Positions 1-10,112 of a stretch of DNA of 13,655 nucleotides are shown piece by piece. The DNA lies in contig JABUEV010000014.1 in NCBI GenBank assembly GCA_013314865.1, forward strand, positions 1-13,655. Reading direction: 5' to 3'. Below the pieces are notes generated by a model. That model was not told where the DNA came from. It was given only the letters and a program-made list of their open reading frames with translations, and made no database searches. Both the position numbers and the translations under genes were made by a program. Position 1 is the stretch's first letter; the number at the start of each line of letters is the position of its first letter. Source of the DNA: Bacteroidales bacterium. Lineage in GTDB: Bacteria > Bacteroidota > Bacteroidia > Bacteroidales > VadinHA17.

Positions 1-1009
1 GTGTGACTGTTATAGTTGCCGATAGTACAGTGTTGCCTGTGTTGGTAGCTGTAAATGAAGGTATATTACCAGTGCCACTTGCAGCTAATCCAATTGATGT
101 ATTATTATTTGTCCAGGTATATGAGGTAGCGGTTCCTGTAAAGCTGACAACTGATGTTAATGCACCATTACATACAACCTGGTCGTTCGGGTCAATAACA
201 GTAGGAGTTGGATTTACAGTAATGTTAAAAGTTTGAGGTGTACCAATACAATTAGTTCCACCTAATGAATAGACTGGAGTAACTGTAATATTGGCAATTT
301 GCGGTGTGGTTCCAGTATTTATAGCAGTGAATGGAGATATATTTCCAGTACCTGTAGCTGCCAGTCCAATTGATGTGTTATCATTTGTCCATGTAAATGA
401 AGTGCTGATTCCTGTGAAATTAATAGCCGTAGTTGTCGTACCATTACATACTACCTGGTCGCTCGGATCATCAACGGATGGAGAGGGATTGACTGATATT
501 GTAAACGTCTGAGGCGTGCCTGAACAATTAATTCCGGCATTACTGTAAACAGGTGTGACTGTTATAGTTGCCGATAGTACAGTGTTGCCTGTGTTGGTAG
601 CTGTAAATGAAGGTATATTACCAGTGCCACTTGCAGCTAATCCAATTGATGTATTATTATTTGTCCAGGTATATGAGGTTGCGGTTCCTGTAAAGCTGAC
701 AACTGATGTTAATGCACCATTACATACAACCTGGTCGTTCGGGTCAATAACAGTAGGAGTTGGATTTACAGTAATGTTAAAAGTTTGAGGTGTACCAGTA
801 CAATTAGTTCCTCCAAGTGAATTCACTGGAGTGACAGTAATAGTCGCAGTTATCGGTGAGTTACCTGAGTTAGTAGCTGTAAAGGAAGGTATATTTCCAT
901 TTCCGGAAGCCGCCAGTCCAATTGATGTATTATTATTTGTCCAGGAGTATGAGGTGCCGGTTCCTGTAAAGTTGACAGCTGATGTAGCTGAACCATTACA
1001 TACTACCTG
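1..1009 (-). repeat. 276-bp in-frame PKD-like domain repeats inside the surface-protein gene
   Basis: Equivalent points of the repeat (the codons for DQVVCNG) recur at 179, 455, 731 and 1007, exactly 276 bp (92 codons) apart. The first and third units are almost identical: bases 1-245 match 553-797 with a single synonymous difference at 128/680, then differ at 246/798 (Ile versus Thr) and diverge soon after. The second and fourth units are clearly more diverged. This is a higher-order A-B-A-C arrangement with a 552-bp offset, pointing to a recent duplication or gene conversion. More copies may lie left of base 1. Confidence 0.95.
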
Positions 1010-4000
1010 ATCAACAGGATCATTTACCGTAGGAATTGGCAGTATGGTAATTAACATATCATCGGATGTATATGGGCATCCAACTTCACTAATGTTTGAC
1101 TGAAGGCGTACTGTTAATGTGCCGGTAGTATTTCCTCCGTTTGGGAAATAGTATATAGGGTTTAGAATTCGGTCACTCGAGAAAGATCCGCCTGACAAGG
1201 CAATCCAGTCCCACTCATTGTGCTGGTTTGGTCTTAGAGCACCACCAACTTCTCCATTTAGTTGTACCGAAGCTGTTCCATAGCAAACAACCCGATCAGG
1301 CCCCGCATATACAGTGGCTGTAGTTGCAACTGAAACAGTAAGTGCACTTGGCTGACTGCTTCCACATGGATTATCAGCAGTTACAGTCACATTGCCACCT
1401 TGTGCATTTATGGGAACATCAACTGTAATTGAATTAGTCCCTAGCCCGCTTGTTATATTCCACCCAGATGGTACCGTCCAGGTGTATCCTGAAACTCCAG
1501 GTACAGGATCAATTGAATAAGTGGTGGTTCTTGCAGGGCAAATTGCAGTAAGACCATTAATAGGTCCCGGGGCTGATAGAACAGTAGTTATGACATTAAT
1601 TGTCAGAGAACTAATATTACTATCTCCGCATGAATTACTTGCATAAACGGTTATATTACCAGATGTTGCTCCGGCTGTTGTGGAAACCGTAATACTATTT
1701 GTACCTTGCCCCGAAGTAATTGTCCATCCGTCAGGTACACTCCAGGTATATGATGTAGCATACTGGACTGAAGCAACACTGTAAGTCAGTCCTGTTCTGT
1801 TAATACACTGCTCAGTTGCACCTGATATTGTCCCGGGGGTCGCTGGAGGACCAGGACTGACCACTACTGGCAATGTCCTTGAAGGGCTGTCACCGCAGGA
1901 ATTTGATGCAACAACTGAAATGTTACCATTCTGTCCGTAATTGCCAGCTGTAACAGTAATTGATGTTGTCCCCTGTCCGCTGGTTATTGTCCATCCTGCA
2001 GGGACACTCCATGCGTAAGATGTTGCAGCTGCAACACTTTCAATGCTGTAAGTCAGCCCTGTCGTTCCCGGACAAACTGGTGTCGGGCCGGTTATGACTC
2101 CTGGTTGTACCGGTGCTGCTGGAAGTACCACCACATCTGCACTTATGCATTCTGTAGTGTTACACTGCCCTTCGGCCCTGACGTAATAGGTAGTGGTTGT
2201 ACCTGCAGGAGGATTAACTGTTATGGGTACCCCTGATCCTGCAGAGGTTCCTCCGCATGAACCGGTATACCATTGCCACTGGGCACCTGTACCCAGTGAG
2301 CCGCCATTTACTGTAAGTGTCTTGGATGTTCCGAAACATGTATTGTTGTTTGTTACTGTTATGCCTGATGGAATTTCCGACAAAGTGCCAACAGTAACAG
2401 CATAATCTCTTGCAGTGCTTATACCGCATGAATTAACTGCTCTTACTGTAATATTTCCGTTCTGTCCGGTTCCTCCTGAAGTAACTGTTATGGTATTAGT
2501 CCCCTGACCTGAAGTTATGTTCCACCCTGCAGGAACAGTCCATTGATATTCAGTCGCATAAGTTATATTTTCAATACTATATGTTAAACCTGTAACATTA
2601 GGACATACTGTACTTAATCCATTTATTGGTCCGGGTGCGGCTGGTGTACCCGGATTAACAGTAACAGCAAGTGTCCGGGCTGTACTTGTGCCGCAATAAT
2701 TGGAAGCAGTCACCGAGATATTTCCATTCTGGCCATAATTGCCGGCAGTGACTGTTATGGTTGTAGTTCCCTGACCACTTACTATGCTCCAGCCTGTAGG
2801 TACTGTCCATGCATAAGATGTCGCATTTGTTACATCCGAAATACTGTAAATATGGCCTGTTGTGCCCGGACAAACTGCTGTTTCACCGGAAATTAAACCC
2901 GGCATTTCAGGAATGCCAGGCCTTACAGTCATCTCAATAGTACTACTTCTGGCAGTAAGAGGAACAGGACAAGTTGTATTCGATGTTGTTTCAACATAGA
3001 TTCTGTCTCTATCATTCAGAGTTGCTGAAGAATAAATCGCAGTATTGGCAACAGGGATATCATTCAAATACCATGTATAGGCAGGTGACGTTCCTCCGTT
3101 AATTGGGAATGCAGTAAATGTCACCTGGTTCCCCGGGCAAATATTGTTAGCTGAAGCCGTAATAGTGACTGAGTGCTGTCTAACCTCATTCACCGTCATA
3201 GTTATAGTGTTGCTTGTGCCTGTGCCGGGACAGGTTATTGTAGCAGGATCACCTGTAACTCTTAAGGTAATTGTGTTCCCATTTGCCAATGCTGAACTTG
3301 TGTAGGTTGACTCTGTCCCCACAGGATTTCCGTTCAAAAGCCACTGATATGTCGGATTCGTGCCGCCATAGTTTACGTTGGCAGTAAATGTCACTTCAGT
3401 GCCGGCACATATATTGTTTGGAGGACTTGCAGAAATCGTTACTGTCGGAGTGGTTACTGGATTGACAGTAACTGTTACTGGATAACCGATGCTGACGCAC
3501 CCTGTTGTACTGTTTCTTACAGTAAGAGTAGCATTATATGTACCTGGTACTACCGCAGGAGGCACTGTAAATAATATCGGACTTGTGGTAAGCTGAGAAT
3601 TTGATACATCAATAAAACCTGCTGAATTAGCAATAGCATTATAGTCAATACTGTATTGATCAGGAGACCCTGTAGTTGAAGTGTATGGGAGTTCTGCAGA
3701 AGTTATACCACGGCATACAACAGGATTTTGCCCTAAGTTTATTGCTGGCAATTCATTGACAGTTATGGTTACTGGCAAGCTTTCAATAGAACCGCAATTA
3801 TAAGACCCGACATCAGTAGCAATAATTCTGTAATGGGTTGTAGCAGTCAGAACTGGTGGGGAATATGTCAAACTTGTGGCTGCTGGAATGTCAGTCCAGT
3901 TTATTCCATCCTGACTGCTTTGCCACTGATATGTAAAGCTGGTATTAGAGCCTCCACTTGCGGGAGTTGCAATAAGTGTGTTTGGTAAACTATTATAACA

Positions 4001-4954
4001 AATTGACTGACTTGAAGAAATTACTGGTGATGACAAAGGATTCAGTACTGTAAGCATCCTCTGCCTGGTTGTACTTGTCCTGATACAAGTGTCACGAGGC
4101 TGATTTAGTGTGGCAAATGACACAGACACTCTGTATTCTCCACTTTGAGATGGAGTGGCATTTGAAATTACAAGCTGATTTGATGTGGTACCTGAATAAT
4201 TTGCATTATCAGAAATAGGATTCCAACCGGTTCCATTGTTAAAAGCCCATTGATATCCAACAACTGAACCCTGAGTGAAAACAGTATAGGTGATACTTTC
4301 TCCGGAACAAATGGTTAAGTATCTGTCTGTAGGGGTGAGATCAGTTATAGTGTTGATGTGTAATACAGCCGATTCAGATGTTACTGATCCACAATCATCA
4401 GTCACAATAACTCTGTACTCGGTACCGTCAATATTTTGACCATTGACTCCAATATCATGAATAGTAAGTACTGAAGTATTAGCGCCTGGTATATCGGAAA
4501 AGTTTCCAGAAGGTGGCCTTGATTGCCATTGATAAGCAACTGTTCCAACTGATCCGGTTATATTAACAGAGAACTCGACGGTATTACCATAGCAATCTGT
4601 TTGATCCAATGGCTGACTTGTAATTGTAAGTGGATTAGCTGGTTGAGTGATAGTTACTGGTAGTGGAGTGCAAGGATTGTTGTTATTGTCTAAAGCGTTA
4701 ATTGTGTATGATCCTGCTGTCAGCCCGGAAAAAGTTCCGATTGGTGACTGTGTGCCTGCATTTGGTGTTATTGTGTATACATAAGGAGCTAATCCTCCTG
4801 AGGCTGAAACTACTATTTGTCCATCATTGCCGTTGTGGCATGTTACATTTCGGGAAGACACTAGTGTAATTGTACACTGTCCCCACGCACTCAGAGCGGT
4901 CATCCAGAGTCCGATAGCTATTGACAGAAATCTGACGAAAATGGCTGATTTTAT
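1..4954 (-). CDS. Giant multi-domain (SprB-like / Ig-like / PKD-like) secreted surface protein, C-terminus outside window
   Basis: The minus-strand frame is open without a stop from the signal-peptide region to base 1: more than 1,630 codons, truncated by the window edge. An N-terminal hydrophobic stretch (FLSIAIGLWMTALSAWGQC) looks like a signal peptide. The mature part opens with an SprB-like unit (TCHNGNDGQIVVSASGG, about 4670-4870). Ig/PKD-like domains with the YQWQ motif follow, down to about 2950. Then come about 88-residue PKD-like units with VCPGTTG...YSI...W.VP.GW.I.SGQGT (about 2880-1320), interrupted by a different domain near 2410-2160. It ends with 92-residue units carrying DQVVCNG...SWTNNNTSIGLAASG...NC.GTPQTF (from about 1010). 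This architecture is known from Bacteroidota type IX secretion cargo and adhesins; the expected C-terminal sorting domain would lie off the left edge. The start is unresolved. The first ATG in frame (4903) would remove most of the signal peptide. The most natural protein start is an ATA codon at 4954, and a TTG lies at 5035 inside a repeat. Family assignment is good; the ligand is unknown. Confidence 0.92.
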   Translation of the reverse strand, partial: MKSAIFVRFLSIAIGLWMTALSAWGQCTITLVSSRNVTCHNGNDGQIVVSASGGLAPYVYTITPNAGTQSPIGTFSGLTAGSYTINALDNNNNPCTPLPVTITQPANPLTITSQPLDQTDCYGNTVEFSVNITGSVGTVAYQWQSRPPSGNFSDIPGANTSVLTIHDIGVNGQNIDGTEYRVIVTDDCGSVTSESAVLHINTITDLTPTDRYLTICSGESITYTVFTQGSVVGYQWAFNNGTGWNPISDNANYSGTTSNQLVISNATPSQSGEYRVSVSFATLNQPRDTCIRTSTTRQRMLTVLNPLSSPVISSSQSICYNSLPNTLIATPASGGSNTSFTYQWQSSQDGINWTDIPAATSLTYSPPVLTATTHYRIIATDVGSYNCGSIESLPVTITVNELPAINLGQNPVVCRGITSAELPYTSTTGSPDQYSIDYNAIANSAGFIDVSNSQLTTSPILFTVPPAVVPGTYNATLTVRNSTTGCVSIGYPVTVTVNPVTTPTVTISASPPNNICAGTEVTFTANVNYGGTNPTYQWLLNGNPVGTESTYTSSALANGNTITLRVTGDPATITCPGTGTSNTITMTVNEVRQHSVTITASANNICPGNQVTFTAFPINGGTSPAYTWYLNDIPVANTAIYSSATLNDRDRIYVETTSNTTCPVPLTARSSTIEMTVRPGIPEMPGLISGETAVCPGTTGHIYSISDVTNATSYAWTVPTGWSIVSGQGTTTITVTAGNYGQNGNISVTASNYCGTSTARTLAVTVNPGTPAAPGPINGLSTVCPNVTGLTYSIENITYATEYQWTVPAGWNITSGQGTNTITVTSGGTGQNGNITVRAVNSCGISTARDYAVTVGTLSEIPSGITVTNNNTCFGTSKTLTVNGGSLGTGAQWQWYTGSCGGTSAGSGVPITVNPPAGTTTTYYVRAEGQCNTTECISADVVVLPAAPVQPGVITGPTPVCPGTTGLTYSIESVAAATSYAWSVPAGWTITSGQGTTSITVTAGNYGQNGNISVVASNSCGDSPSRTLPVVVSPGPPATPGTISGATEQCINRTGLTYSVASVQYATSYTWSVPDGWTITSGQGTNSITVSTTAGATSGNITVYASNSCGDSNISSLTINVITTVLSAPGPINGLTAICPARTTTYSIDPVPGVSGYTWTVPSGWNITSGLGTNSITVDVPINAQGGNVTVTADNPCGSSQPSALTVSVATTATVYAGPDRVVCYGTASVQLNGEVGGALRPNQHNEWDWIALSGGSFSSDRILNPIYYFPNGGNTTGTLTVRLQSNISEVGCPYTSDDMLITILPIPTVNDPVDQVVCNGSATSAVNFTGTGTSYSWTNNNTSIGLAASGNGNIPSFTATNSGNSPITATITVTPVNSLGGTNCTGTPQTFNITVNPTPTVIDPNDQVVCNGALTSVVSFTGTATSYTWTNNNTSIGLAASGTGNIPSFTATNTGNTVLSATITVTPVYSNAGINCSGTPQTFTISVNPSPSVDDPSDQVVCNGTTTTAINFTGISTSFTWTNDNTSIGLAATGTGNISPFTAINTGTTPQIANITVTPVYSLGGTNCIGTPQTFNITVNPTPTVIDPNDQVVCNGALTSVVSFTGTATSYTWTNNNTSIGLAASGTGNIPSFTATNTGNTVLSATITVT

Positions 4955-4964
4955 GGTTTTATTT

Positions 4965-5051
4965 CGGATTTTGGCGAACGCAGAGAGCCAATCCCGCGTA
5001 AGCGGGAGCGGATTTTGGCGAACGCAGAGAGCCAATCCCGCGAAGCGGGAG
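4965..5051. repeat. Two tandem copies (44 and 43 bp) of a small hairpin-bearing repeat
   Basis: The unit beginning CGGATTTTGGCGAACGCAGA occurs at 4965-5008 and again at 5009-5051, differing only by one missing T. A partial third copy begins at 5052. Each copy carries a hairpin with arms TCCCGC / GCGGGA around a GTAA or GAA loop. The pair abuts the 5' end of the surface-protein gene, and the minus-strand reading frame of that gene stays open through both copies. It looks like a REP-type intergenic element rather than coding sequence. It could also form structure in the 5' leader of the surface gene. Confidence 0.85.
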
Positions 5052-5127: not shown

Positions 5128-5158
5128 GCCCTGAGCCCTGTGCCCTGAGCCCTGTGCC
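5128..5158. repeat. Heptamer array GCCCTG(A/T), four copies
   Basis: Four consecutive 7-base words alternate GCCCTGA and GCCCTGT, followed by a trailing GCC. The array is intergenic, upstream of the surface-protein gene. The sequence just before it (TTCGCCAGGACTCTGGAGGA, 5101-5120) resembles 9995-10014 in another spacer, so this is one member of a scattered set. Confidence 0.85.
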
Positions 5159-6180
5159 ATCTTTGACATGCCTTCCGGCAAAGCTGTTTCCCCCATCCGG
5201 ACGGAAGAGCCTTATGATCTTTGCGGCAATATGGTCAGCAACTTCTCTCAAATATCTCTTTTACTCAGGTTAAGGGGTGAAGATTCCCGGAACGACTTTA
5301 AACCTAATCTTAAAGCCGTGACAGGCAATCAACCCCTTTTTATTAATAGTTTATGCTGTGTTGTTGGTTGTTATATGGCTGTATGTCAATTTATTAAATA
5401 ACATCCGGAGCGGAACTAAAAAATCTGGTTTTCAGGATTTAAAGATATACTATAATATATATGTACAAATTCTTTTTTGACCAACTGTAACTTTTTTTAC
5501 ATATACAAGTCTTTTGCATCAACAAGCCCTCATATTCTGCTTTGATCCGCAATGATTTCGGGGACCGTTACAACAGATCAGAATATACGTCTTAAACGCC
5601 GGTAGTTATAACGTATTGATACGAACTATCACTAAATCAATACCATAACAGCCAGAACGCTTTATTTTATTTTTATACTTTACAAGAACTTAACACTTAA
5701 CCTTTCCGGTTTCATGCAGCGAAAACATCAAATCAAATTTAACAGGTTTTATGAAAAAGACTATAGGAACATTAAAATTTTTTAATCACATATGATTAAA
5801 AACTAATGAAAAAAATCAATTCTAATTTTTAGAAATGTTATCTAAAATTTAGCAGACATAGTTAAATTAATGACAATATTTCAAATAAATATTTATAAAA
5901 ATGAATATTCTTATATAATTGAATAACTGTTTAATAAAATTGAAATAAGATCACCTTATTAGTTAAATCATACCTGTTTTATTGTTAATACTTTAACAAT
6001 GAAATGAAGAAATTGAGGTATGTTCATTTGCAATTTGCGGTGCAGATATTGTTATTGAGTTAAGGCAATTGTTAATTTGATTGACCTTTTTGCCCCAATT
6101 TTTTGAGAGGTTTTTAAGCTAATTCTGTTAAAAGATTTAATAGGCAATCAGTTTCTGCTGCCTTGCATTGAAATAGTCGT
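5159..6180. other. Gene-free, mostly AT-rich spacer
   Basis: About 1 kb with no credible gene. Short open frames here (for example 5168-5401 on the plus strand) have no recognisable domain and no coding-like composition. From about 5400 the DNA becomes strongly AT-rich. It contains a dyad GTATTGAT / ATCAATAC at 5613-5620 and 5636-5643 and a perfect AT hairpin at 5779-5802. The leader and promoter of the surface-protein gene should lie here or nearer the gene, but I could not pick a convincing promoter: AT-rich sequence gives many chance matches, such as TAAATTTG on the minus strand at 5741-5734 with no partner box. Confidence 0.6.
5779..5802. repeat. Perfect AT-rich hairpin (10-bp arms, 4-nt loop)
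   Basis: TTTTTAATCA and TGATTAAAAA are exact reverse complements separated by CATA. T and A runs on both sides give it the form of a weak bidirectional terminator, but the stem has little G/C and no adjacent gene end explains it. A regulator-binding dyad or a chance palindrome in AT-rich DNA are equally possible. Confidence 0.4.
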
Positions 6181-6205
6181 TCGGCCCTGCTTCCGCTTCA
6201 CGGAA

Positions 6206-6319
6206 CTGACTCACTGCGTTCGTCAGAGTCTTTCAGTCGTGTCGAAGCAAAGCGAAGATCCTCTGACGAAACTTCGTTTGTCAGGGCAAGCCACTGACGA
6301 AACTTCGTTTGTCAGGGCA
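6206..6319. repeat. Palindromic repeat cluster with CTGAC...GTCAG stems
   Basis: A 26-bp unit (CTGACGAAACTTCGTTTGTC followed by AGGGCA) occurs identically at 6263-6288 and 6294-6319. Each copy can fold with arms CTGAC-AAAC / GTTT-GTCAG around TTC with one bulged G. A related CTGAC...GTCAG pair sits upstream near 6209-6228. The cluster lies beyond the 3' end of the nucleoside transporter gene and resembles REP-type elements. A 73-codon open frame crossing it on the minus strand is made of these repeats and is not taken as a gene. Confidence 0.8.
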
Positions 6320-6377
6320 GGCCTGACCGTTAGCGTCGGGACAGTCTGGAATCCTGTAACTGTTTCTCTGAAATTTT

Positions 6378-6425
6378 GAAACCCTGAAACACTGAAACCC
6401 TGAAACTCTGAAACACTGAAACACT
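6378..6425. repeat. Octamer array GAAACNCT, six copies
   Basis: Six perfectly phased 8-base words (GAAACCCT, GAAACACT, GAAACCCT, GAAACTCT, GAAACACT, GAAACACT). The array is non-coding and lies between the palindromic cluster and the 53-bp repeat copy. Only the sixth base of the word varies, so the period is preserved while the sequence drifts. Confidence 0.9.
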
Positions 6426-6436
6426 CTGCGTCACTG

Positions 6437-6489
6437 ACGCTCACTGATGCTCCTCCGTCGGTCAGTGGCTTCGACCTTCGTTGGTCAGT
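6437..6489. repeat. 53-bp palindromic intergenic repeat, copy 1
   Basis: This block matches 10043-10095 at 49 of 53 positions. It contains a dyad with arms CACTGA and TCAGTG around GCTCCTCCGTCG-like sequence, and a second arm pair built on TCGACCTTCG...GGTCAGT. It stands about 70 bp beyond the stop codon of the nucleoside transporter gene in the direction of transcription. The other copy occupies the same kind of place behind the L,D-transpeptidase gene. It may act as a terminator or mRNA-end structure, or be a REP-like mobile repeat. Confidence 0.85.
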
Positions 6490-6503
6490 ACCAATAGCCC
6501 GCC

Positions 6504-6548
6504 GCCTTCTGCCTACCGCCTTCTGCCTTCTGCCTTCTGCCTTCCGCC
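6504..6548. repeat. Heptamer array GCCTTCT, six copies
   Basis: Six phased 7-base words (five GCCTTCY-type and one GCCTACC) plus a trailing GCC. It ends only 7 bp from the stop codon of the nucleoside transporter gene, so it would be transcribed as the start of that gene's 3' untranslated region. Confidence 0.9.
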
Positions 6549-6555
6549 TAATCCC

Positions 6556-7833
6556 CTACATCAATATCCCCGCCAGAGATGCCGAAATATACGAAGCCAT
6601 TGTGCCGCAGATCATCGCTTTGAAACCCAGTCTGGCCAGATCGGCCTTGCGGGTCGGAGCCATCGCCCCGATGCCTCCGATCTGAATGGCTATTGAGCTG
6701 AAATTTGCAAATCCGCACAACGCAAAACTGGCTATTACTATCGATTTGGCACTCAGCATGCCCTGCTTTATCATCGGAGCCAGGTCGGTGTATGCCACGA
6801 ATTCATTTATCACCATCTTGGTGCCCATCAGCGATCCCACTTCAAATGATTCTGAAACCGGTACCCCCATCACAATTGCAAACAAAGAAAAGAAAACCCC
6901 GAAGACATCCTTAAGCCTGAGGTTTTCAACATCAAGACCTATCCCCTCAAGTGAAATGCCTATCAGTCCGAGCAGTTGACCAAAATAGCCCAGGAGGGCG
7001 TCGACAAGAGCCACAAGGGCTATCACACCTATAAGCATGGCAATCACATTTATCGAAATCCTCATCCCGTCGGATGCTCCGTGTGATATTGCATCCATAA
7101 TGTTGGCATGTTCCTTTTTCACTTCCAGCTTCACCGTGCCTTTTGTCTCCGATTCTTCAGTCTCGGGATACACAATCTTTGATATTACCAGGGCACCGGG
7201 GGCAGCCATAAGACTTGCTGCAAGGAGATAGGGCGCCGGCACTCCCATCGAAATATATACTGCCATCACCCCGCCGGCAATGCATGCCATGCTTCCCGTC
7301 ATTGAAGCCAGAAGCTCCGAGCGGGTCATGCCTGCAAGATAAGGGCGTATCATTATCTGAGCCTCCACCTGTCCAACAAAAGCACTGGCAACATTCGACA
7401 ATGCTTCACTGCCGCTCACTCTCATGGCCCAGTGGACAAAACGTGCCATTAGTGCCACCACCCTCTGCATCAATCCTACATGATAAGCCATTGCGACCAG
7501 CACACAGACAAATATTATTGTGGGAAGAAGAATGAAAAGAAACACACCTCCACTTACTATTGAAGGGGGAAGTATTTCTGATATTTTAGTCAGATCACCA
7601 AATACAAACCGGCCGCCTTCCTGCGAAAAATCAAGCAGTTTGTTAATAGCCTGGCCAAGCCAGTAAAAAATCTTTTGCCCCAGCGGCACCTTCAAAATAA
7701 AAATTGCGAGGGCAAGCTGAAGGCCAAGCCCTGTAAACACCACCCTGTAGTTTATTGCTTTCCTGTTGTTCGACCAGAGGTATGCAAGAAGAAGAATTAT
7801 TACTATTCCGATTATTCCCGTAAATCGTGCCAT
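6556..7833 (-). CDS. Concentrative nucleoside transporter (CNT / NupC family)
   Basis: Inner-membrane symporter that imports nucleosides with Na+ or H+. The 425-residue protein has the length and layout of the family: an N-terminal hydrophobic segment ending SNNRKAINYRVV (Nucleos_tra2_N-like), a gate-like middle, and a C-terminal transport domain. Family signature motifs are visible: GSEALSN near residue 141, GQVEAQIMIRPYL near 154, SESFEVGSLMGTKMVINEFVAY near 327, and GFANFSSIAIQIGG near 374. In the structurally studied CNT the equivalent Gln-Thr-Glu, Glu and Asn/Ser residues bind base and ribose; here the Thr position is Val. Specificity is therefore not predicted. I chose the ATG at 7833 over the one at 7854 because a TAGGTTTG promoter box ends 8 bp before 7854, which would leave the longer form without a leader. 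It looks like a single-gene unit. Confidence 0.93.
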   Translation of the reverse strand: MARFTGIIGIVIILLLAYLWSNNRKAINYRVVFTGLGLQLALAIFILKVPLGQKIFYWLGQAINKLLDFSQEGGRFVFGDLTKISEILPPSIVSGGVFLFILLPTIIFVCVLVAMAYHVGLMQRVVALMARFVHWAMRVSGSEALSNVASAFVGQVEAQIMIRPYLAGMTRSELLASMTGSMACIAGGVMAVYISMGVPAPYLLAASLMAAPGALVISKIVYPETEESETKGTVKLEVKKEHANIMDAISHGASDGMRISINVIAMLIGVIALVALVDALLGYFGQLLGLIGISLEGIGLDVENLRLKDVFGVFFSLFAIVMGVPVSESFEVGSLMGTKMVINEFVAYTDLAPMIKQGMLSAKSIVIASFALCGFANFSSIAIQIGGIGAMAPTRKADLARLGFKAMICGTMASYISASLAGILM

Positions 7834-7862
7834 GTAATTCAGAGTTAGGTTCAAGCCGGTCT

Positions 7863-7870
7863 CAAACCTA
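7863..7870 (-). promoter_or_regulatory. Candidate Bacteroidota -7 box (TAGGTTTG) for the nucleoside transporter
   Basis: On the minus strand the bases read TAGGTTTG, an exact fit to the TAnnTTTG -7 consensus of Bacteroidota sigma factors. A TTTTG lies about 15 bp further upstream, closer than the usual 19-21 bp, so the -33 partner is imperfect. Transcription would start close to 7855, favouring translation from the ATG at 7833. Confidence 0.5.
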
Positions 7871-7935
7871 CATTTTTTTTCAATTCAAAAGAATGATTTG
7901 ATGAAAAAAGGTTAGGAAGAGTCAAAGGCTTCCGC

Positions 7936-7977
7936 GCAACTCCGTGGTTAAATAGCTCTGTGCAACTCCGTGGTTAA
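7936..7977. repeat. Direct repeat of GCAACTCCGTGGTTAA, period 26
   Basis: The 16-base word occurs exactly at 7936-7951 and 7962-7977 in the spacer between the 266-residue membrane protein gene and the nucleoside transporter gene. On the minus strand it reads TTAACCACGGAGTTGC. Similar ACCACGGAG / ACCACAGAG phrases recur between genes in many environmental bacteria. It has no evident coding role. Confidence 0.8.
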
Positions 7978-8002
7978 GAAAGATTTATTATCCTTAGTTG
8001 CT

Positions 8003-8803
8003 TTATATATAAACAGTTATTTGTCCTTTTGTCGGGATTGCCCTGTAAATTACTTTTGCATCAGTACGCGGCAGTTTGATTTTAATGAACGGATGATATT
8101 CCGGCACTTTAAGCTGAGCCGCACTCTTAAGAGCTTCCCATGAGTTTCCAAGCCTGTATTTCAGGTCAAACCAGGCCAGCTCTTTACCATATCCTTTTTT
8201 TGCCTTTTCTGACTGTGTCACATATATCCTGATTCCTTTGTCAGTTTCAAGTATGTAGCTGACAGCTTCATAGGCAGATGTGTCGGGCATTATATCAGGT
8301 TTATACTCTGAAGTATCTTTTGGAGCCATTTTGACCATCAGCGGCTCTTTCTTAATTGTCGCCCTGTCACCGGTGATATTCAGAGGGGAGGAGAGGAGGG
8401 AAGTAATAATAAAATCATTTCCCTGATGAAGCATTTTGCTCATTCTTATACCTTCAATATCTGTTGTCTTTACCACAACGCCGGCTATTTCGAGCTGAGC
8501 CAGACTGTCGGCAAGATTAAGCGTAAGACTGATTGAGTCAGTCCCGGCCATAAGGATGCGCGACTGCAAAAAGGCTTTCTCCCTTAATAATCCAATGTAC
8601 AGCGAATCGTTTATAAATCTTTCATCAATTTGAGAAGTTGTGGTCAGGCCGCTTCTTATTTCATTTTCAAGTTCCTTGAACTTTTTCCCCGGAGCCATGA
8701 TTGACATTATGGCGTAGTAAATCAGGAAAGCGGTAACGATCAAAACAGTCACAACTAAACCACGGCTCATCTTAAAGGTTTTATTTACTTTATCATTATC
8801 CAT
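8003..8803 (-). CDS. Single-pass membrane protein of unknown function, downstream of an L,D-transpeptidase
   Basis: I do not recognise this 266-residue protein. It has a short charged N-terminus (MDNDKVNKTFKMSR), one transmembrane helix at about 15-36 (GLVVTVLIVTAFLIYYAIMSIM), and then an extracytoplasmic, mostly polar domain with mixed helix and strand character ending in TKGQITVYI. No lipobox or catalytic motif stands out. It starts 17 bp after the stop of the YkuD L,D-transpeptidase gene on the same strand, so the two are almost certainly co-transcribed. Both encode proteins with a single N-terminal anchor facing the periplasm. A role as partner or regulator of that enzyme is inferred from position only. 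Confidence 0.8.
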   Translation of the reverse strand: MDNDKVNKTFKMSRGLVVTVLIVTAFLIYYAIMSIMAPGKKFKELENEIRSGLTTTSQIDERFINDSLYIGLLREKAFLQSRILMAGTDSISLTLNLADSLAQLEIAGVVVKTTDIEGIRMSKMLHQGNDFIITSLLSSPLNITGDRATIKKEPLMVKMAPKDTSEYKPDIMPDTSAYEAVSYILETDKGIRIYVTQSEKAKKGYGKELAWFDLKYRLGNSWEALKSAAQLKVPEYHPFIKIKLPRTDAKVIYRAIPTKGQITVYI

Positions 8804-8820
8804 TTTAAATCACAATGCAA

Positions 8821-9627
8821 TTAAAAGATATAGACTTTCGAACCGATGCTGAGGGTGTTATATACAGCCTCCAGATCCTCGTCATTCAGCCTTACGCACC
8901 CGTGAGTGACAGGCATGCCGAGGAAACGTTTATAGATGGTGCCGTGTATCAGGTATCCGTCTCCGATGCTGAGGGCATAGTCACCGAGTACTCCGTATTC
9001 GTATCTTGACGGGTGGTCGGCAGGGGGAATGGGCAGTCCTTCCTCAACAAAAGCCCAGTCAGGTTTACGCCAGACAGGCGATGAAATCTTTCCCTGTATA
9101 CGATACTTCCCTTTGGGTGTTTTGAATATCCATTTTCTCTCCCCTTCGGTTTTAAGCATTGTATAGCTTCCCGAACTGCAGAATCCTTCCCTGACCAGCT
9201 TCCTGTTCCTGTAGAGGTAAAACCTGTTGTCGGTAGTGTTTATGACAATGTATGACTGTCCGGATGTATATGAATCGTATTTTTTTGCAAGTCTCTGATT
9301 TTCTCTTGTCAGTGCGGTTATAGTTTTTTTGTATTCAGGATTCTCTTTAAGCTCCTTACTGGAAGTTATTTGAGTTTTTCCCGGTGAAGGAATTTCCTGA
9401 AGCGCCGGAACCGCATAGAATACAAACATGAATATTGCAAAGAGGCTTAAAATTGTAACAAATGTTACAAAAGTAATTTTAAGGCTTTTAAGCAGTTTTG
9501 CGTTGGAAGAAAGTTTGGCGGCAATGTCCTTGAAAAATGTAAGGACTTTTGACCAGAGCAAAGCCGCATTCGTCCTCACCACGGCAGGAATCCCATTAGT
9601 TTTATTGTATGTATTGTTCTCTTCCAT
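8821..9627 (-). CDS. Membrane-anchored L,D-transpeptidase (YkuD / ErfK family)
   Basis: A 268-residue protein with a 50-residue cytoplasmic part, one transmembrane helix at about 51-72, a short coiled linker around residues 88-115, and a YkuD catalytic domain from about 125 to the C-terminus. The active-site signature is complete: IHG at 227-229 and THGCVRLND with His242 and nucleophile Cys244. Members of this family form 3-3 peptidoglycan crosslinks or attach proteins to peptidoglycan through a thioacyl-enzyme on this cysteine; beta-lactams other than carbapenems usually act on them poorly. No substrate-binding LysM or PG-binding domain is present. It is the first gene of a two-gene unit with the 266-residue membrane protein. 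Its upstream spacer consists of 7- and 8-base repeat arrays, and no clear promoter could be picked. Confidence 0.93.
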   Translation of the reverse strand: MEENNTYNKTNGIPAVVRTNAALLWSKVLTFFKDIAAKLSSNAKLLKSLKITFVTFVTILSLFAIFMFVFYAVPALQEIPSPGKTQITSSKELKENPEYKKTITALTRENQRLAKKYDSYTSGQSYIVINTTDNRFYLYRNRKLVREGFCSSGSYTMLKTEGERKWIFKTPKGKYRIQGKISSPVWRKPDWAFVEEGLPIPPADHPSRYEYGVLGDYALSIGDGYLIHGTIYKRFLGMPVTHGCVRLNDEDLEAVYNTLSIGSKVYIF

Positions 9628-9640
9628 GTAGTATTAATTG

Positions 9641-9741
9641 GTTTCGCGTTTCGGGTTTCGCGTTTATCGTTTCGGGTTTTGCGTTTCGCGTTTATCGTTT
9701 CTAGTTTATAGTTTAAAGTTGAAAAGTTGAAAGGTTGAAAA
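9641..9741. repeat. Heptamer array GTTTCGC-like (11 copies) running into octamer array GTTGAAAA (3 copies)
   Basis: From 9641 to 9717 the sequence is eleven phased 7-base words beginning GTTT (GTTTCGC, GTTTCGG, GTTTCGC, GTTTATC and so on, decaying to GTTTATA and GTTTAAA). At 9718 the phase switches to three 8-base words GTTGAAAA/G. The array lies 13 bp upstream of the L,D-transpeptidase start codon, so it occupies the leader or promoter position of that gene. Confidence 0.9.
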
Positions 9742-9770
9742 GTTTTATTTTATTCCTTTGTGATTCTGCT

Positions 9771-9802
9771 CTGCTGGTCTGCTGGTCTCCTGTTCTGCTG
9801 GT
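9771..9802. repeat. Octamer array CTGCTGGT, four copies
   Basis: Four phased 8-base words (CTGCTGGT, CTGCTGGT, CTCCTGTT, CTGCTGGT) in the spacer between the two L,D-transpeptidase-fold genes. No gene overlaps it. Confidence 0.85.
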
Positions 9803-9877
9803 CATATATTTTAAGAAGATTTGCTGGTTAAACAGGTTTTTCAAGTTATAAATCATTGAACATTTGAATCTTTAAAT

Positions 9878-9925
9878 CTTCAACCTTTCAACCCTTCAAC
9901 CTTTCAACCCTTCAACTCCTCAACC
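9878..9925. repeat. Octamer array YTTCAACC, six copies
   Basis: Six phased 8-base words (CTTCAACC alternating with TTTCAACC, then CTTCAACT, CCTCAACC). Its reverse complement, GGTTGAAR, resembles the GTTGAAAA words at 9718-9741. The two arrays could therefore pair in a transcript as the arms of one large, imperfect stem about 140 nt apart. Confidence 0.9.
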
Positions 9926-10042
9926 ATAAACCGCCTAAATCTTTGAATCATTGAATCTCATTCTCTCTTTAGCCTTTTTCCTGCGCCCTCCTCCTTCGCC
10001 AAGGCTTCTGAGGACAAGTGTGCCCTTTGCTCTGTGCCACTT

Positions 10043-10095
10043 ACGCTCACTGACGCTCCTCCGTCGGTCAGTGTCGTCGACCTTCGTCGGTCAGT
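10043..10095. repeat. 53-bp palindromic intergenic repeat, copy 2 (possible terminator)
   Basis: This copy matches 6437-6489 at 49 of 53 positions. The first dyad has 7-bp arms CACTGAC / GTCAGTG and the second is based on TCGACCTTCGTCGG. It lies 18 bp beyond the stop of the upstream L,D-transpeptidase-fold gene, where a terminator is expected, but neither stem is followed by a clear U run on the minus strand. Confidence 0.85.
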
Positions 10096-10112
10096 GCCTT
10101 CGGCCTGTGCCA

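What the first reader, a model, noticed from the sequence alone, without database searches (positions are those of the whole stretch)
5128..9925. Intergenic arrays of different 7- and 8-base words with strict period
Six separate spacer tracts (5128-5158, 6378-6425, 6504-6548, 9641-9741, 9771-9802, 9878-9925) are each a run of 3-11 phased words of exactly 7 or 8 nt. The words differ completely between tracts (GCCCTGA, GAAACNCT, GCCTTCT, GTTTCGC/GTTGAAAA, CTGCTGGT, CTTCAACC). None falls in a gene. Within a tract the words vary at one or two fixed positions while the period holds, and one tract switches from 7 to 8 nt midway. This suggests an ongoing process that generates or maintains short periodic DNA between genes, independent of sequence. 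Heptanucleotide repeats are known in some cyanobacteria; I know of no described equivalent for this Bacteroidota pattern.
Basis: partly seen in the sequence, partly recalled or inferred. Interest (0 to 1): 0.8.

Follow-up and report, generated by a model that had tools for sequence, protein, structure and literature searches.

The report
Short-word repeat arrays between genes
The spaces between genes in this bacterium carry real runs of 7- and 8-letter DNA words that recur across its genome and look recently gained, but intergenic word repeats of this kind are already described in other bacteria.

Summary
The pattern is genome-wide. In 38 contigs not chosen for repeats (157 kb), 17 arrays lie outside ORFs and none inside; 16 of the 17 have period 7, 8, 14 or 16.

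The interpretation needs three corrections. The words are not unrelated: each recurs at other loci, and tract 4's 8-nt part is an inverted near-copy of tract 6. The arrays are parts of dispersed mosaics: copies share connectors and differ in unit number, with conserved strand and order in this genome; a weak test elsewhere did not find that order. Equivalents are in print, Bacteroidetes included (PMC4679880, PMC4692102).

The gain looks recent: the 485-nt spacer at 9628-10112 is 15 nt or less in 26 of 27 measured relatives. The best account is slippage growth plus copying of modules between spacers; selection keeps them out of genes. How modules move, and whether they do anything, is not shown. 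A new member of a known kind, with octamers and multi-word composites.

The parts
5128..5158 (+). heptamer array GCCCTGN, 4.4 units (14-nt double unit repeated exactly); on the minus strand four GGG runs, a quadruplex-type motif
6342..6376 (-). connector (minus strand reads about AAAATTTCAGAGAAACAGTTACAGGATTCCAG) shared with dispersed copies in L256, L257, L258 and L260, and in part L255
6377..6425 (+). octamer array GAAACNCT, 6 units; the same word is found in other families and phyla
6424..6492 (+). dispersed module (CACTGACGCTC..GTCGGTCAGTG, hairpin-like by eye), 88% identical to part of 9628-10112
6502..6549 (+). heptamer array GCCTNCN, about 6.6 units, begins 6 nt beyond the stop codon of the nucleoside transporter
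9628..10112 (.). 485-nt spacer between two L,D-transpeptidase genes, 15 nt or less in 26 of 27 measured genus relatives; a mosaic of dispersed modules
9641..9714 (+). heptamer array GTTTCGN / GTTTATN
9715..9744 (+). octamer array GTTGAAAR, inverted near-copy of the 9878-9925 word; the DNA fold pairs the two (z -2.1)
9766..9803 (+). octamer array CTGGTCTN
9856..9925 (+). octamer array, morphing from TTGAATCT to CTTCAACN
9980..10111 (+). longest dispersed module of the spacer; near copies on contigs C486 and C61, a partial one on C442, of the same genome

Best explanation
The tracts are non-coding short tandem repeats of period 7 and 8, the long-unit class of bacterial simple sequence repeats. 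An array grows and shrinks by one or two whole units, most likely through slipped-strand mispairing or unequal recombination; loops of this size are thought to be poorly handled by mismatch repair. Arrays and the short connectors between them are also copied to other spacers, so that spacers become mosaics of the same modules. Genes are spared because insertions there are selected against. Shown here: reality, intergenic placement, period, shared modules, differences in unit number between copies, and absence at the same junctions in relatives. Inferred: slippage as the growth step, and gain here rather than repeated loss in relatives. Not known: how modules are copied between sites, and any function; neutral or mildly selfish DNA is the default.
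For: Six arrays scoring 13 to 28 against a shuffle maximum of 11. 17 arrays outside and 0 inside ORFs in 38 contigs not chosen for repeats. Double-unit repeats: GCCCTGAGCCCTGT and CTTCAACCTTTCAACC, each with 100% match at its double period. Five copies of one composite share a connector (a sixth, L255, in part) but differ in unit number (for example 10 against 7 AGCWCAG units in L257 and L258). Pieces of 9628-10112 recur separately: 46 other partial matches, a lower bound because only 40 of 91 candidates were scored. Strand coherence 44 of 48 neighbour pairs (null maximum 39) and order agreement 63 of 68 (null maximum 77%) fit copying of composites. The spacer is 485 nt against 15 nt or less in 26 of 27 measured relatives. 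In this genome the concentration of changes in one column is what a slippage simulation gives. MutS_V matches are present, and PMC4060949 states that repair of loops falls off sharply with loop length (passage).
Against: Slippage alone does not explain why one word stands on 15 contigs of the genome, or why GAAACYCT recurs in distant phyla. No copying enzyme was identified. No strain pairs were available to see a unit gained or lost. The slippage simulation does not fit everywhere: in G057 one column varies more than predicted (0.835 against 0.679; 2 of 500 simulations as high), in the other genus samples less (0.512 against 0.659; 500 of 500 as high).
Confidence: 0.72

Rival explanations
1. 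The arrays are binding sites, on DNA or RNA, for a repeat-reading protein that regulates neighbouring genes, as MacGregor proposed for TAACTGA.
For: Recurrent fixed bases with one freer base per word (TTCAACC+N: 76 units in 11 arrays, N = T25 C26 A25 G0). Same-word array pairs share the most variable column in 67 of 252 pairs, where 1 in 7 to 1 in 8 is expected by chance (the expectation printed there covers all 3363 pairs, pattern-ascertained ones included).
Against: No conserved position: 0 of 29 relatives show an array at the ldt2-ldt1 junction and 1 of 29 at the transporter end, with another word. No consistent distance to a start codon (12 tandem arrays: 7 nearer the upstream stop, 5 nearer the downstream start). 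Within this genome the one-column pattern equals the slippage simulation, and the unit counts come from arrays partly chosen by that word.
Confidence: 0.1
2. The arrays are passengers of REP-like hairpin elements moved by a RAYT (Y1) transposase.
For: Two Y1_Tnp genes in the genome. A hairpin module CCCGAC..GTCGGGT sits between or inside word arrays in 5 of 28 listed chains.
Against: The RAYT on C443 is followed by a different REP (GTCCCGTAGGGAC); no word array is seen by eye in the flanks printed for either RAYT gene, although C467 has a word cluster about 3 kb away (L262 5359-5442). 23 of the 28 chains lack the one hairpin module that was looked for.
Confidence: 0.08
3. Assembly or binning artefact of a fragmented metagenome genome.
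For: 591 contigs; in the G057 sample (contigs partly chosen for a word) 8 of 43 arrays lie within 150 nt of a contig end, where 1.7% of the sequence lies.
Against: In this genome 2 of 32 arrays are at contig ends, as expected (6% of sequence). The same word is on contigs of isolates such as Winogradskyella, Aquimarina, Tenacibaculum, Polaribacter and Pseudomonas sp. LD120.
Confidence: 0.03
4. Arrays arrive by horizontal transfer on phages or plasmids.
For: Patchy phylogenetic spread of GAAACYCT.
Against: Only 2 and 8 stretches of 2.9 million viral contigs hold the two tested words. Plasmids were not tested.
Confidence: 0.05

Closest known systems
Intergenic TAACTGA heptamer repeats of Beggiatoaceae, Cyanobacteria and five Bacteroidetes (MacGregor 2015, PMC4679880; abstract and three sections read)
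   Same: Period 7, mostly intergenic, dispersed, 2-43 units, mixed with other heptamers in Microcystis and Elizabethkingia, absent at the same junction in close relatives of some Bacteroidetes; the word TAACTGA is one variant in G057.
   Different: Here octamers are nearly as common as heptamers, many words are used in one genome, and composites have an order; no clear preference for start codons was seen.
GGGANTN / GGGGA(C/T)T heptamer repeats of Xanthomonas and Nostoc (PMC4692102; two sections and passages read)
   Same: About 90% intergenic in Xanthomonas, few in divergent spacers, fixed and variable columns, inverted pairs (as in G057), length varying between species.
   Different: The word there forms G-quadruplexes; here 1 of the 6 window tracts has the motif. 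Most Xanthomonas repeats stay between the same genes; the two junctions tested here do not.
Long simple sequence repeats with 5-11-nt units (Mrazek 2007, known only through citations in PMC4679880 and PMC4692102)
   Same: Unit length, heptamer excess, slippage proposed.
   Different: The original was not held; the ordered composites seen here are not mentioned in the passages read.

Membership tests
Bacterial long-unit (5-11 nt) intergenic simple sequence repeats | tandem units of 5-11 nt longer than chance | tested here: met
   300 shuffles reach at most 11; six tracts score 13 to 28
Bacterial long-unit (5-11 nt) intergenic simple sequence repeats | predominantly outside coding sequence | tested here: met
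   17 outside, 0 inside, with 11% of sequence outside ORFs of 100 aa or more; with the window and two chosen contigs 26 outside, 5 inside (the 5 lie in the window and L039)
Bacterial long-unit (5-11 nt) intergenic simple sequence repeats | variation in whole units | tested here: met
   between paralogous copies; not tested between strains
TAACTGA-type repeats | the TAACTGA word in tandem | tested here: not met
   0 tandem matches in the 61 loci held of this genome (about 11% of it), 1 in the G057 sample, 0 in six other genus samples
TAACTGA-type repeats | placement just upstream of start codons (Beggiatoaceae) | tested here: not met
   of 12 tandem arrays 7 nearer the upstream stop, 5 nearer the downstream start; small sample, starts taken as the longest ORF
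G-quadruplex heptamer repeats | four G-runs of three or more with short loops | tested here: inconclusive
   met by 1 of 6 tracts (5128-5158, minus strand), not by the other five
REP / RAYT elements | palindromic elements beside a Y1 transposase gene | tested here: not met
   the printed flanks of both RAYT genes hold no word array by eye; the one on C443 has its own REP

The most novel reading that the evidence does not exclude
The arrays are the visible parts of a mobile family of composite intergenic cassettes: ordered, oriented strings of 7- and 8-nt word arrays joined by fixed connectors, which are copied into gene junctions by an undescribed process (for example template switching between arrays) and then grow by slippage.
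Probability: 0.15. Interest if true: 0.6.

Novelty: new member of a known kind. Interest (0 to 1): 0.36.

Why it matters
It shows that intergenic hepta- and octamer arrays form a rich, fast-changing vocabulary in one Bacteroidales genus and can open a tight gene junction by nearly 500 nt. That makes the genus a good system to ask why slippage favours 7-8 nt and how short repeats spread between sites. They may also break short-read assemblies (contig ends in G057).

Tried and rejected
A general grammar of words: strand and order are conserved in this genome. Elsewhere they were not found (10 ordered pairs for, 9 against; neighbours 17 same strand, 31 opposite; only one multi-word cluster in the genus samples). 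That test is weak: the GTTTCG pattern is loose, and many of its hits in those genomes look like chance two-unit matches (14 of 48 printed). I read the order as shared descent of composites. The words were defined by eye after seeing the data, and besides the window 19 of the 61 loci were chosen because they hold TTCAACC or GAAAC arrays (17, two).

One free base per word as evidence of protein recognition: striking, but in this genome it equals a slippage simulation (0.591 against 0.579, 194 of 500 simulations as high). G057 exceeds it (2 of 500); other genus members fall below it (500 of 500 as high). A null without duplication had shown an excess in all three groups. Same-word pairs share the column in 67 of 252 pairs. 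The 716 units of named genomes are ascertained by the search pattern.

RAYT as mover: against. Phage carriage: against. Known RNA families: none at gathering score in the window. Orientation: pyrimidine strand on the C-rich contig strand 28 to 12, antisense to tandem genes 15 to 6; suggestive, clusters not independent. Literature: nine searches; among the listed titles and abstract beginnings I saw no description of octamer composites in Bacteroidota.

Full report
The observation. TRF and an autocorrelation score both find the six tracts. They are the only arrays of period 2-20 and score 12 or more in the window. The 7-to-8 switch at about 9714 is real. Two details change: the 8-nt part of tract 4 is an inverted near-copy of tract 6, and tract 6 starts at 9856. 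Folded as DNA, 9630-9965 pairs these two parts (z -2.1; 4 of 100 shuffles fold at least as well).

Genome-wide. The window is contig C418 of a 3.08-Mb draft genome in 591 contigs. In 38 of its contigs not chosen for repeats (157,175 bases, 11% outside ORFs of at least 100 aa) there are 17 arrays of score 14 or more outside ORFs and none inside. Periods: 7 (7), 8 (5), 14 (2), 16 (2) and 6 (1); none at 3-5 or 9-12. That is about 108 per Mb and 4.5% of intergenic sequence. The earlier count with all 41 loci (26 outside, 5 inside) includes the window and two contigs picked for a word; the 5 'inside' lie in the window (1) and L039 (4). First-order Markov resampling of intergenic sequence gave none at score 16 in five rounds. 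Arrays per spacer type: 6 in 1945 convergent bases, 12 in 9722 tandem, 3 in 4550 divergent; 5 at contig edges and 5 in ORFs are left out (all 41 loci).

A vocabulary. TTCAACCNTTCAACC has 58 matches on 15 contigs of the genome against 0 for the reversed control. The three-unit pattern is rare elsewhere in the class: 3 of 198 genomes hold it, this one included; one of the other two (G096) has more matches to the reversed control (15) than to the pattern (2). GAAACNCTGAAAC has 33 matches here (control 1), 49 in G012, 18 in G032 and 8 in G021 (controls 0), and 64 in G057 of another family (control 2); 47 of the 60 genomes searched have at least one match, mostly at control level. Of 125 such arrays in these loci 116 lie outside ORFs of 110 aa or more; of 143 other arrays there, 75 have period 7 and 43 period 8, and 26 of these 118 lie in ORFs. 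Other genus members have period-7/8 arrays with their own words; G266 had none in 29 kb.

Mosaics. The spacer 9628-10112 gives 46 other partial matches in the genome, to different pieces (40 of 91 candidates scored, so a lower bound). Words stand next to each other on coherent strands (44 of 48 neighbour pairs; best-sign null mean 34.3, maximum 39 of 60 simulations) and in one order (63 of 68; null mean 70%, maximum 77% of 40 simulations). Copies of one composite, the window's 6342-6549 among them, share connectors such as AAAATTTCAGAGATATRGTTGCAGGATTCC (five of six copies; L255 in part) while unit numbers differ. Modules of this composite match 33 of the 36 genus genomes searched, this one included, but only 2 of the 24 from other genera (low-complexity matches included). 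In other genomes the order was not found, in a weak test. I therefore read the order as the trace of copying within this lineage.

Recent gain. The two L,D-transpeptidase genes and the next gene (no Pfam match) stand together in all 29 relatives' loci held (the best 30 matches were given as loci, this genome's included; 52 of 58 genomes matched); the transporter is seen in 24 of the 29 and the small lipoprotein-like gene in 27, the stretches held being short. The junction between the two transpeptidases is 485 nt here. In the relatives the median is 10 nt over 29; two of these (L086, L095) are mismeasured because the alignment ended early, and of the other 27, 26 are 15 nt or less and one is 98 nt. 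Starts were taken as the most upstream ATG, here and there alike. No array is seen in the 29, most of which are too short to hold one. At the end of the transporter gene 1 of 29 relatives has an array, with a different word; six of the 29 contigs end within 700 nt. Gain in this lineage is the simplest reading.

Mechanism. Growth in whole units fits double-unit repeats and the unit differences between copies. MutS_V matches are present, and repair of loops is reported to fall off sharply with loop length (PMC4060949, passage), which would let 7-8-nt slips through. Spread between spacers is required by the shared connectors but its agent is unknown: the RAYT on C443 carries a different REP, and viral contigs hardly carry the two tested words.

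Prior art. MacGregor 2015 (abstract and three sections) describes TAACTGA heptamers in Bacteroidetes, mixed assemblages included. PMC4692102 (two sections and passages) describes intergenic heptamers with fixed and variable columns, inverted pairs and few divergent sites. PMC12699852 (passages) notes that a subset of 6-9-bp units is highly enriched in prokaryotic phyla. PMC9426551 (passages) links intergenic tandem repeats with long-read structural variants in Planctomycetota. Mrazek 2007 itself was not held. The finding is therefore a new member of a known kind; the octamers, the size of the vocabulary and the ordered composites are its own features.

Noticed in passing
window 2-4966 (minus): Long surface-type protein with five PKD_6 domain stretches and an Ig_7 (CHU_C-associated) domain; a 276-nt internal repeat at 32-1009.
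   Followed up: partly
G057 loci L045 38-171 and 16721-16893, L047 3842-4024, L053 3065-3245, L055 4091-4196, L064 2473-2533: Heptamer arrays in inverted pairs about 20-110 nt apart (adjacent in L064), able to form long hairpins; three start within about 17 nt of a stop codon; possible terminators.
   Followed up: partly
L245 around 455, L247 around 108, L252 around 16, 13627, 13691, 15495: A 45-nt hairpin module (CCCGAC..GTCGGGTGAGCTCGGCGAAGCC) sits between or inside octamer arrays; its mover is unknown.
   Followed up: no
L261 from about 6000: RAYT gene followed by regularly spaced REP hairpins GTCCCGTAGGGAC, a separate repeat family of the same genome.
   Followed up: no
G026 locus L132 1702-1808 and 14113-14161: Long, nearly perfect octamer arrays GTTATGGC and GGTGTTAT in a relative.
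   Followed up: no
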